From Streptomyces sp. Q6 (GTDB lineage: Bacteria > Actinomycetota > Actinomycetes > Streptomycetales > Streptomycetaceae): a DNA stretch of 64,000 nt. The position numbers and the translations under genes are program-made. The stretch is taken from contig NZ_CP146022.1 of the NCBI RefSeq assembly GCF_036967205.1, positions 1,612,001 through 1,676,000 on the forward strand, given 5' to 3'. The notes beneath the pieces are model-generated. The model was not told the DNA's origin. It searched no databases and saw only the letters and a program-made list of their open reading frames with translations. How positions within the stretch are numbered: position 1 is the stretch's first letter; every line of letters starts with the position of its first letter. Shown here one piece after another: positions 34,238 through 36,717 of the stretch.

Positions 34238-35977
34238 ATGACCGACCAACACGCGGAACCGGCGCGGGGCCCGGGAACCGCGGGTCCAGGACCGGACGGA
34301 ACCGGTTTCGCCTACCAGGGAGCGGAAGAGGAACTGATCGTCGTGGCGCGGCCGGAGGCCCGGCTGCGCGCCCAGCCGGACGGAGTCAGCTCGGCCGCGG
34401 GCGCCGACGTGTCGGCGCTGAACATGTTCCTCGGCGACGAACAGCTCGCCCTGGAGCCGCTGTTCGGCAACGAGGAGCGGTTGCAGGGCATCACCGAGGC
34501 GGCTCAGGCCGGGGCCGACATCCCCGATCTGGCGCTCTTCTACCGGGTGCGCGGCGGCGCCGACCGCGCCCAGGAGCTGCGGTCCAGGATCGCGGCGCTG
34601 CCGGAGATCGACACGGCGTACGTGAAGCCGGGCGCGGTACCGGCCGGTTCGGCCGCCGAGTTCGAAGAGGCGCGGCGGATGAAGGAGAAGGCGGCCGCCA
34701 CGCCCGACTTCACCGGCAGGCAGCGGTACCTGGGCCCGGCGCCCGAGGGCATCGACGCGCAGTGGGCGTGGCAGCGGCTCGGTGGCAGCGGCGAGGGCGT
34801 CACGGTGATCGACGTCGAGGGCGCCTGGCAGCTCGGCCACGAGGACCTGTCGGCGAAGCTCGCCGGCGTCGTGGTCGGCACGCCGATCTCCGATGTGGCG
34901 TGGCGCAACCACGGCACGGCCGTGCTCGGCGTGATCGGCGGTGACCGCAACGAACGCGGGATCACCGGGATCGTCCCGGAGGCCGTGACGGCGGCGGCGT
35001 CGTTCCAGGGCGTGGGCACGGCCGCGGCGATCCACGCGGCGGCCGAGCGGCTGAACCCGGGCGACATCGTCCTGGTCGAACTGCACCGCCCCGGGCCGCG
35101 GTTCGACTTCGAACCACGTGACGACCAGCGCGGCTACATCGCCCTGGAGTGGTGGCCGGACGACTTCGCGGCCATCAAGTACGCGACGGCGAAGGGCATC
35201 GTGGTGGTCGCCGCGGCGGGCAACGGCGCCGAGTCGCTCGACGACGCGGTGTACGAGCGCCGTCCGGACGAGTTCCCGGCCTGGTGGCACAACCCGTTCA
35301 ACCCGTCGAACCGCTCCTCCGGCGCGGTCCTGGTGGGGGCGGGGGCGCCGCCGCCGGGCACGCACGGCCGCGACCACGGCCCGGACCGCTCGCGGCTCGC
35401 GTTCTCCAACTACGGGGCGCGGCTCGACGCCCAGGGCTGGGGCCGTGAGGTCACGACGACCGGCGGCTCCTGGAACGGGCCCGGAGATCTCCAGGGCGGC
35501 GCCGAGGAGATCGCCTGGTACACCGACACCTTCTCCGGCACCTCGTCCGCCTCCCCGGTGGTCGTCGGCGCGCTGGCCGCGCTCCAAGGCATGCTCAAGG
35601 CCGGCGGCCAGCGCCCGATGACGTCGCAGCGGGCCCGCGAGGCGCTACGGGCGACCGGCTCACCACAGCAGGACGCCCCCGGCCGGCCCGCTTCGCAGCG
35701 GATCGGCAACCGGCCCGACCTCAGGGCGGCGGTCACGAACCTGCTGCCCTCCACGGTCGGCTCGGGCCAGGCCGAGCGGTACTGGGACGAGCTGATCCCG
35801 TATCCGCCCGAACTCCCGCCGCGGCTGCGGCTGTTCGTGGCGGGCTCCTGGAGGAATCTGAACCATCCGTCCCCCGAGATCCGCCAAGCGGTGCACGCCG
35901 CTTTCGCGGGGGGACGGCCCGACATCCGTGTCTGGTTCTCGGACGACGAAGTCGTCGGCCTGGTGGTCACGGGCTGA
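34238..35977 (+). CDS. Intracellular-type subtilisin-like serine protease (S8) with an unusual C-terminal module
   Basis: 579 residues, no signal peptide. Residues about 95-135 (LALFYRVRGGADRAQELRSR) look like a small inhibitor-type propeptide. The catalytic domain (about 170-515) keeps all residues: Asp192 (VTVIDVEG), His225 (WRNHGTAVLG), oxyanion Asn329 (AAAGNG) and Ser436 (FSGTSSASP). The last about 55 residues (RLRLFVAGSWRNL onward, ending VVGLVVTG) resemble the C-terminus of the next gene's product, a glutamine-rich protein 35 bases downstream. The two are surely cotranscribed. Substrate and biological role unknown; the neighbour is the obvious candidate partner or substrate. Confidence 0.88.
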   Translation: MTDQHAEPARGPGTAGPGPDGTGFAYQGAEEELIVVARPEARLRAQPDGVSSAAGADVSALNMFLGDEQLALEPLFGNEERLQGITEAAQAGADIPDLALFYRVRGGADRAQELRSRIAALPEIDTAYVKPGAVPAGSAAEFEEARRMKEKAAATPDFTGRQRYLGPAPEGIDAQWAWQRLGGSGEGVTVIDVEGAWQLGHEDLSAKLAGVVVGTPISDVAWRNHGTAVLGVIGGDRNERGITGIVPEAVTAAASFQGVGTAAAIHAAAERLNPGDIVLVELHRPGPRFDFEPRDDQRGYIALEWWPDDFAAIKYATAKGIVVVAAAGNGAESLDDAVYERRPDEFPAWWHNPFNPSNRSSGAVLVGAGAPPPGTHGRDHGPDRSRLAFSNYGARLDAQGWGREVTTTGGSWNGPGDLQGGAEEIAWYTDTFSGTSSASPVVVGALAALQGMLKAGGQRPMTSQRAREALRATGSPQQDAPGRPASQRIGNRPDLRAAVTNLLPSTVGSGQAERYWDELIPYPPELPPRLRLFVAGSWRNLNHPSPEIRQAVHAAFAGGRPDIRVWFSDDEVVGLVVTG

Positions 35978-36012
35978 CGTACGACCACGCTATGACGAGA
36001 AGGGGTACCCGC

Positions 36013-36666
36013 ATGAGCACCACCCCGCAGATCGGTCAGCAACAGCAGCAACAGCCCTTCGGACAGCAGCAGGGCCAGCAGGGTCAACAGGGGCAGCAGC
36101 AGGGCCTCCAGCCGATTCCGCGCAGCGCCCAGCAGGGGCAGCAGGGCCAGCAAGGGCAACAGGGTCAGCAGCAGGGCATCCAGGGTCCGAGCACGATGCC
36201 GCCGCAGTTCGGCCAGCAGCAGCAACAGCCCTTCGGACAGCAGCAGTTCGGACAGCAGCAACAGCAGCCGTTCGGGCAGCAGCAGATCCCGCAGCACCTT
36301 CAGCAGCAGCTCCAGCAGATGGGCCAGCAGCAGCCGTTCCAGCAGCTGCTCCACCAGATGGGCCAGCAGCGCGGCCAGCAGCAGGGGCAGCAGTCCCAGG
36401 TGCCGCAGACCGAGGTCCCGGAGATCTCGACCCAGGCCCTGGTCACGGGCGTCGCGCAGAACTTCTTCGACTACGTCCAGCCGCTCCCCGGCCAGGCCGA
36501 GCTGCTGTACCTGTTCGTGGACAACGCCTGGCGCGTCCTGGTGAACCCGGTCGACGAGACGCACGAGATGGTCCAGCAGGCGTTCGCCTTCGGGCAGCAG
36601 GTCATCGCCTTCTACGACAACGCCAACAACCCCGGTCTCATCGTCGGCGTGGCGATCACCCGCTGA
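36013..36666 (+). CDS. Glutamine-rich prion-like protein sharing a C-terminal module with the subtilase
   Basis: 217 residues; ATG at 36013 follows GAAGGGG (an upstream frame start adds 7 residues without a better site). Residues 6-129 are low complexity with 67 Gln among the first 130 residues, Gly, Pro and Phe the rest (repeats such as QQQQPFGQQQ and GQQGQQGQQ), very like yeast prion domains. After a short linker, residues about 163-217 form a folded-looking module, AELLYLFVDNAWRVL to LIVGVAITR, that aligns with the end of the subtilase: same LFV, WR, NP/HP, AF and VG-[VL]-xT positions. No signal or membrane segment. I know no named family for it. Confidence 0.85.
   Translation: MSTTPQIGQQQQQQPFGQQQGQQGQQGQQQGLQPIPRSAQQGQQGQQGQQGQQQGIQGPSTMPPQFGQQQQQPFGQQQFGQQQQQPFGQQQIPQHLQQQLQQMGQQQPFQQLLHQMGQQRGQQQGQQSQVPQTEVPEISTQALVTGVAQNFFDYVQPLPGQAELLYLFVDNAWRVLVNPVDETHEMVQQAFAFGQQVIAFYDNANNPGLIVGVAITR
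36028..36399 (+). repeat. CAG/CAA-rich coding repeat
   Basis: The DNA for the glutamine-rich half consists of CAG and CAA codons with GGC/GGT/GGG, in units such as GGCCAGCAG. The mixed CAG/CAA use shows that the Gln tract is kept at the protein level, not only by repeat slippage. Confidence 0.85.
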
Positions 36667-36678
36667 CGTGACCCGACC

Positions 36679-36717
36679 GCGGCGCCGGACGGGAGAACGA
36701 ACCCCGTCCGGCGCCGC
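36679..36717. terminator. Bidirectional terminator
   Basis: GCGGCGCCGGACGGG (36679-36693) and its perfect complement at 36703-36717, loop 9 bases, between the convergent glutamine-rich gene and the GH31 gene. Confidence 0.8.

What the first reader, a model, noticed from the sequence alone, without database searches (positions are those of the whole stretch)
34238..36666. Subtilase and glutamine-rich protein in one operon share a C-terminal module
Seen: two genes 35 bases apart end in similar segments of about 55 residues. Lined up, both have L-x-LFV, then WR-x-L, a Pro two or three residues on, AF about 20 residues later, and a terminal V-G-[LV]-[VA]-[VI]-T. One copy follows an intact S8 protease, the other a 130-residue glutamine-rich region. 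A shared tail on two unlike proteins in an operon is the usual sign of partners that meet through that tail, in the manner of effector-associated domains. A protease and a prion-like polymer could form a regulated degradation or signalling system. I know no described system of this make-up.
Basis: partly seen in the sequence, partly recalled or inferred. Interest (0 to 1): 0.85.

Follow-up and report, generated by a model that had tools for sequence, protein, structure and literature searches.

The report
Protease paired with its own tail
A soil bacterium carries a protein-cutting enzyme whose small end-piece is repeated in the glutamine-rich protein made by the next gene, and an unrelated end-piece shows the same pairing in other microbes, which hints at a swappable docking system.

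Summary
The last ~70 residues of the S8 subtilase and of the glutamine-rich protein are homologous (hhalign E 3.9e-12, probability 97.6; best of 200 shuffles scores 22 against 62.8), although pairwise BLASTP misses it. The pair is kept in 21 of 23 Streptomyces that have the subtilase tail in a 150-genome sample and in 80 of 80 named loci returned, the best of 277. The tail has no significant Pfam, NCBIfam or PDB match; AlphaFold2 gives a beta-rich, OB-like domain.

Unexpectedly, close relatives of the protease in Haloferax and in another Streptomyces carry an unrelated tail, and there too the next gene encodes a free copy. That second tail also ends an astacin metalloprotease and a beta-propeller protein, each with a free copy downstream; on two other proteins no free copy was found. 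Three tail-less relatives have neither domain nearby.

Best reading: an exchangeable docking module joining a cytosolic protease to an adaptor or scaffold, like effector-associated domains but matching none described. Binding is inferred; polymer formation is untested.

The parts
34238..35977 (+). S8-family subtilase, 579 aa, no hydrophobic signal sequence
   Evidence: ORF; PF00082 E 2.8e-12; max 12-residue Kyte-Doolittle mean 0.54 in first 45 aa
34340..34765 (+). N-terminal domain of the subtilase family, prodomain-like (inferred)
   Evidence: No Pfam match; homologous to a 147-aa protein in L214, 33% identity, E 2e-20
34811..35656 (+). S8 catalytic domain, from D192 to the end of the Pfam match; D192, H225, N329, S436 invariant in 21 aligned homologues
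   Evidence: Pfam match itself is 34880-35656
35747..35974 (+). C-terminal type-1 tail of the subtilase (76 aa)
   Evidence: homologous to the Q tail, hhalign E 3.9e-12; no significant Pfam, NCBIfam or PDB sequence match
35978..36012 (+). 35-base gap between the two genes
36013..36666 (+). Glutamine-rich protein (mechanical ORF starts at 35992; conserved start MSTTPQ at 36013)
36013..36405 (+). Gln/Gly-rich N-terminal part
   Evidence: 80 homologues: Gln 33-51%, median 44%; Asn median 0; Gly median 13%
36295..36363 (+). Conserved block HLQQQLQQMGQQQPFQQLLHQMG inside the Gln-rich part
   Evidence: motif pattern matched in 79 of 80 homologues
36406..36663 (+). C-terminal type-1 tail of the Gln-rich protein, predicted beta-beta-beta-alpha-beta-beta domain
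   Evidence: AlphaFold2 pLDDT 88.5, pTM 0.76; OB-like by Foldseek, weak

Best explanation
The pair is a cytosolic subtilase and its dedicated partner, coupled through an exchangeable C-terminal module. Shown: the subtilase ends in a small domain, predicted beta-rich; the next gene encodes a second copy of that domain, here carried by a Gln/Gly-rich arm; in two close relatives the tail is an unrelated domain and the free copy next door is of that same type; three tail-less relatives have neither domain in their loci. Inferred: tail and free copy bind each other or co-assemble, so that the partner acts as adaptor or scaffold which gathers, holds or positions the protease (possibly letting the N-terminal domain be removed when proteases are brought together), and the Gln-rich arm adds multivalent self-association. 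The likely setting, also inferred, is a conflict or stress response, because distant relatives lie beside trypsin-like, astacin-like and nuclease genes.
For: Tail homology. Pair kept in 21 of 23 sampled genomes and 80 of 80 named loci, at a fixed site between a PAC2 gene and a tRNA-synt_1e-family gene in 76 of 76 full-length loci. Matched types: Haloferax tail vs next gene 78% identity over 85 aa, E 1e-50; Streptomyces G667 59% over 81 aa, E 1e-36; type-1 and type-2 profiles unrelated (hhalign probability 0.1). Same arrangement on a BNR/sortilin-like propeller (G194) and an astacin (G001). No type-1 or type-2 domain around tail-less relatives L117, L118, L199. 'EAD principle' of copies on adjacent genes: PMC7159879 and PMC8195603, passages read.
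Against: No binding data and no complex model. No clear coevolution signal between the two type-1 tails beyond the protease body, and in six loci same-locus copies are no more alike than copies from other loci (0.296 vs 0.292). Two Streptomyces keep the tailed subtilase with no detected partner gene in the genome (G011, G108). Type-2 tails in G430 and G097 have no second copy in the genome. Relatives with other tails show no duplicated tail (only 1 of 20 loci did, and several of the 20 have no tail; G984 did not). The Q tail evolves faster than the subtilase tail (mean identity 52% of 12 against 85% of 10).
Confidence: 0.45

Rival explanations
1. The free copy is a titrating inhibitor: it occupies the site that the protease tail uses for self-association or target docking and keeps the protease quiet until it is removed.
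For: Protease and small partner are adjacent on one strand, partner downstream in all pairs seen; two genomes lacking the partner are compatible with a dispensable regulator.
Against: Retention of the tailed protease without the partner in G011 and G108 argues that an unopposed protease is not lethal; a Gln-rich arm of about 130 residues is not needed for a blocker.
Confidence: 0.15
2. The free-tail protein is the cognate substrate: tail-tail contact delivers the Gln-rich (or other) arm to the protease, whose cleavage releases it.
For: Gln-rich arm with a conserved block in 79 of 80 homologues and faster evolution of the Q tail than of the protease tail.
Against: In Haloferax, Streptomyces G667 and G194 the partner is the bare 84-aa domain with no arm to release; in G194 the tailed protein has no protease match.
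Confidence: 0.13
3. The tail is a sorting or ligand-binding domain and free copies co-assemble with it into a ring or array, as in A-B proteins or secreted proteases with a common C-terminal tag.
For: Best Foldseek matches of the Q tail are OB-fold B subunits of AB5 proteins (best E 0.01; one with TM 0.58/0.66); the type-2 tail is C-terminal in all 6 tailed proteins seen, on several hydrolase types, and the free copy is downstream in all 4 pairs.
Against: No Foldseek match with E<=0.001, and OB folds are common; no signal-peptide-like stretch in subtilase or Q protein.
Confidence: 0.15
4. Simple tail duplication without functional coupling: the free copy is a by-product of gene duplication kept by chance.
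For: No clear coevolution signal; 2 of 23 lack the partner.
Against: Present in 80 of 80 named loci, occurrence with two unrelated tail families and three effector types, neither domain found where the tail is absent.
Confidence: 0.1

Closest known systems
Effector-associated domains (EADs) of NTP-dependent conflict systems (Kaur et al. 2020, PMC7159879; follow-up PMC8195603); passages read
   Same: Small non-catalytic terminal domain present on an effector peptidase and again in the protein of the adjacent gene; seen on several effector types (type 2).
   Different: Predicted beta-rich, whereas most EADs are helical; no Pfam match to a described EAD; none of the five neighbouring genes tested is a MoxR, vWA, GAP1, STAND or caspase component; the partner is a bare domain or a Gln-rich protein rather than an NTPase core; type-1 copies from one locus are not closer to each other.
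NucA-trypsin multi-peptidase systems ('System 3' of PMC7159879)
   Same: A protein homologous to the subtilase's N-terminal domain lies between a trypsin/Endonuclease_NS protein and a SIR2-HerA pair (L214); the paper mentions S8 domains in such systems (passage).
   Different: None of the five neighbours tested at the Streptomyces locus is a trypsin, nuclease or NTPase gene.
KLIKK proteases of Tannerella forsythia (PMC4404884; abstract and passages)
   Same: Unlike proteases share one C-terminal domain of similar size (86 residues).
   Different: Those carry signal peptides and are secreted; no free copy of the domain in an adjacent gene appears in the passages seen.
Amyloid signalling motif pairs (NLR and adjacent effector)
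   Same: Adjacent genes share a short terminal module for homotypic signalling (search listing and recall).
   Different: Here the module is a predicted folded ~70-residue domain, not a short amyloid motif (motif length recalled).

Membership tests
Peptidase S8 (subtilase) | Sequence match to the family above the curated cut-off | tested here: met
   PF00082 47 bits vs cut-off 21.8
Peptidase S8 (subtilase) | Asp, His, Ser triad and oxyanion Asn | tested here: met
   D192, H225, N329, S436 invariant in 21 sequences; role of residues recalled, activity not tested
Type VII secretion mycosin (TIGR03921) | Score above the NCBIfam equivalog cut-off | tested here: not met
   36.4 bits vs 278.75
Effector-associated domains (Kaur et al.) | Small terminal domain, second copy in the adjacent gene | tested here: met
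   type 2:
Effector-associated domains (Kaur et al.) | Adjacent copies closer to each other than to other copies | tested here: inconclusive
   Type 1 not (0.296 vs 0.292); type 2 sister pairs in 2 of 4 (Haloferax, G001)
Effector-associated domains (Kaur et al.) | One copy fused to a core component (VMAP, iSTAND, Ubl, GAP1) | tested here: not met
   Own genome holds two detected copies of the domain, on the subtilase and the Q protein; neighbours are GntR, PAC2, SMP-30-like, GH31, tRNA-synt_1e
Effector-associated domains (Kaur et al.) | Sequence membership in a described EAD family | tested here: not met
   22 type-1 tails: best Pfam match E 0.069, to a cellulose synthase domain; type-2 tails: none above cut-off. 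That Pfam holds EAD models is recalled
AB5-type B subunit | OB fold of the B-subunit kind | tested here: inconclusive
   Foldseek best E 0.01, TM about 0.4-0.6
AB5-type B subunit | Secreted with a signal peptide | tested here: not met
   No hydrophobic N-terminal stretch in either protein, Kyte-Doolittle only
Q/N-rich prion-like proteins | Gln/Asn-rich low-complexity region that self-templates | tested here: inconclusive
   Gln-rich yes, Asn 0% median; templating not testable

The most novel reading that the evidence does not exclude
A general design in prokaryotes that I found no description of: cytosolic proteases and other effectors carry an exchangeable C-terminal docking domain whose free copy, encoded next door, is the scaffold; tail and scaffold are swapped together between unrelated domain families and across bacteria and archaea, and in Streptomyces the scaffold has gained a glutamine-rich condensing arm, giving a protease recruited to a self-made condensate.
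Probability: 0.3. Interest if true: 0.8.

Novelty: new variant of a known kind. Interest (0 to 1): 0.62.

Why it matters
If matched tails bind, this is a simple two-gene protease-recruitment system with interchangeable adaptors, outside the NTPase-centred systems in which the effector-associated-domain principle was defined, and seen in Actinomycetota and a haloarchaeon. It gives two domain families without a Pfam model, a ready set of matched and mismatched pairs for binding tests, and a folded-domain protein with a Gln-rich arm in bacteria whose condensation can be tested directly.

Tried and rejected
BLASTP between the two window tails: nothing; the relation needs profiles or the cross-genome search. 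Extra subtilase-tail hits in G070 and at G104:C1:11137308 are rejected as chance: the family profiles do not recover them (one unrelated 7-bit match in L082). Full-length AlphaFold2 of the subtilase is unusable (mean pLDDT 41.6); it neither supports nor contradicts the tail fold. Mirror-tree coevolution: no clear signal. A relation between type-1 and type-2 domains: none. Mycosin: rejected. Defence models: PADLOC 'subtilase' 12.1 bits, E 0.025, not taken as a match; none for the Haloferax, G667 and G001 effectors. Viral collections: no relative of either tail confirmed in IMG/VR, one distant relative of the protease body there and one in a Paenibacillus phage record (not opened). Plasmids: no type-1 tail; of 15 plasmid records with the protease I opened 13, not the two Proteus mirabilis records. 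Sigma-70 promoter and T-tailed terminator scan of the locus: nothing. Generality of tail duplication: of 20 loci tested only Haloferax showed a real hit (L208 gave E 0.003 to an antisense frame, rejected), several of the 20 having no tail to test; G984 gave only E 0.011. So the rule is shown for type-1 and type-2 tails only. Nine paper searches showed no description of this pair in their listings; subscription literature and preprints are not held.

Full report
1. What is there. The window lies in a genome of the genus Streptomyces (its genus-mates include contigs identical in length to named Streptomyces records, e.g. G093 C1 and L131). At 34238-35977 there is a 579-aa subtilase and, 35 bases after its stop, a glutamine-rich protein gene whose conserved start is 36013. 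The subtilase has the S8 domain above the Pfam cut-off and keeps D192, H225, N329 and S436 in all 21 aligned sequences (their roles are recalled). Neither protein starts with a hydrophobic stretch, so both are probably cytosolic (inference).

2. The shared tail is real. Two window tails compared directly give no BLASTP match. With 23 subtilase tails and 20 Q tails as profiles, hhalign gives E 3.9e-12, probability 97.6, over 65 columns; 200 column-shuffled profiles reach a score of at most 22.1 against 62.8. Searched alone against 150 whole Streptomyces genomes at E <= 0.001, the window's Q tail finds in 21 genomes two places, the Q gene and the subtilase gene next to it, and in 2 genomes the subtilase only. 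Profiles of each tail find the other: the Q profile hits the subtilase tail in 80 of 80 named loci, the subtilase profile hits the Q tail in 68 of 80.

3. The pair is kept. Of 23 sampled genomes with the subtilase tail, 21 have the Q gene directly downstream (20 measured, gaps 35-145 bases; L072); in G011 and G108 no such frame follows. A sample of 200 family genomes gave 10 with the tail, all with two copies (three of the ten, G000, G067 and G095, were already in the first sample). A scan of GTDB genome contigs gave 277 relatives of the protease body; the best 80 were returned, all Streptomyces, and all 80 carry one subtilase tail and one Q tail. In 76 of 76 full-length loci a PAC2-family gene lies upstream and a tRNA-synt_1e-family gene (cysteine ligase MshC by recall) downstream, so the pair looks like an inherited feature of one chromosomal site. 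In a phylum sample of 396 genomes from 236 genera the type-1 tail occurs in 3, all of this genus. Most sampled Streptomyces lack it (127 of 150).

4. The glutamine-rich protein. In 80 homologues the part before the tail is 85-184 residues with 33-51% Gln, median 0% Asn and 13% Gly. A block of the form QPxQxLLxQ recurs in 79 of 80. It is Gln/Gly-rich rather than Q/N prion-like in composition.

5. The fold. AlphaFold2 on the Q tail with 22 sequences gives pLDDT 88.5 and pTM 0.76, strands 12-23, 33-38, 41-46, helix 50-61, strands 65-71, 75-85. Foldseek's first matches are B subunits of AB5 proteins (OB folds), none significant (best E 0.01; TM up to about 0.58/0.69 further down the list). No significant PDB sequence (best E 0.7), Pfam (best E 0.069) or NCBIfam match. 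The full subtilase model is unusable.

6. The unexpected part: tail type and partner type go together. The protease body is widespread: by tblastn 55-56% identical on a Haloferax mediterranei and a Nostoc plasmid, 48-56% on Mycetohabitans and Paenibacillus plasmids. The Haloferax enzyme has an unrelated C-terminal domain (type 2, Trp-rich), and the next gene encodes that domain alone: 78% identity over 85 residues, E 1e-50. A Streptomyces, G667, has an enzyme 59% identical to the Haloferax one, with the same type-2 tail and, downstream, a free type-2 domain, 59% over 81 residues, E 1e-36. Type-1 and type-2 profiles are unrelated. A type-2 profile then found two of 296 genomes of the phylum: in G194 the tail ends a protein of BNR/sortilin-like repeats (no subtilase match) and the next gene is again a free type-2 domain; in G430 it ends a protein without a Pfam match above cut-off, and there is no second copy in the genome. 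In 209 Streptomyces it occurs in two: G001, at the end of an astacin-family metalloprotease (PF01400 E 8e-49) with a free copy downstream after a ~92-residue Gly/Ala/Pro-rich reading frame, and G097, on a protein that looks by eye like that of G430, with no second copy in the genome. So type-2 tails have a free copy next door in 4 of 6 cases. Tail-less relatives (Mycetohabitans, Paenibacillus, G377) have neither domain in their loci, nor has Nostoc, whose tail is an FG-GAP-like fragment. Of the 20 loci tested only Haloferax had a duplicated tail; several of the others have no tail to test, and more distant relatives with other tails have none duplicated.

7. What does not fit. The two type-1 tails show no clear coevolution beyond the protease body (partial r 0.066, 32 of 500 permutations as high), and copies from one locus are no closer than copies from different loci. 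For type 2, two of four pairs are sisters in a FastTree tree (Haloferax 0.99, G001 0.97); in the other two the free copies and the tails tend to group by role, with weak support (0.57 for the free copies). Two genomes live with a tailed protease and no detected partner.

8. How it may work. Matching of tail and partner across unrelated domain families is hard to explain unless the two act together. The simplest mechanism is that the free domain binds or co-assembles with the tail and serves as scaffold or adaptor for the protease; in Streptomyces the Gln-rich arm would add multivalency. Inhibitor, substrate and ligand-binding-ring readings remain open and are ranked below. The setting may be a conflict system: a plasmid locus of Rhizobium johnstonii holds a protein homologous to the N-terminal domain between a trypsin/Endonuclease_NS protein and SIR2-HerA genes, and a Paenibacillus plasmid has an astacin-like, an S8 and a trypsin-like gene beside this subtilase. 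This is context at a distance, not evidence for the Streptomyces pair.

9. Comparison. The arrangement follows the 'EAD principle' of Kaur et al. (passages read), but fold class, sequence families and the absence of a core NTPase component at the locus speak against membership. Nine searches of the held library showed no paper on this pair in their listings.

Noticed in passing
L214:949-7562 (Rhizobium johnstonii plasmid pRlX5): A 147-aa protein homologous to the subtilase's N-terminal domain, without catalytic domain, lies between a trypsin/Endonuclease_NS protein and a SIR2-HerA pair; it may be a remnant of a subtilase gene.
   Followed up: partly
L118:1594-6080 (Paenibacillus sp. 37 plasmid pART37): Cluster of astacin-like, S8, trypsin-like and this subtilase, whose N-terminal domain and catalytic domain are in two overlapping reading frames.
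   Followed up: no
L247:6970-7288 (unnamed Streptomyces genome G001): A Gly/Ala/Pro-rich ~92-aa reading frame sits between the type-2-tailed astacin and the free type-2 domain, perhaps the counterpart of the Gln-rich arm.
   Followed up: no
L241:3792-5816 and L248:4965-5789: Two proteins, alike by eye and without a Pfam match above cut-off, carry the type-2 tail without a second copy in their genomes.
   Followed up: no
L080 and L081: Two Streptomyces keep the tailed subtilase, but no glutamine-rich reading frame follows within the 1.2 kb read and no second type-1 domain is in the locus.
   Followed up: partly
window 36679-36717: A long GC-rich inverted repeat lies between the Gln-rich gene and the convergent GH31 gene, read by eye; the T-tail terminator scan does not list it.
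   Followed up: no
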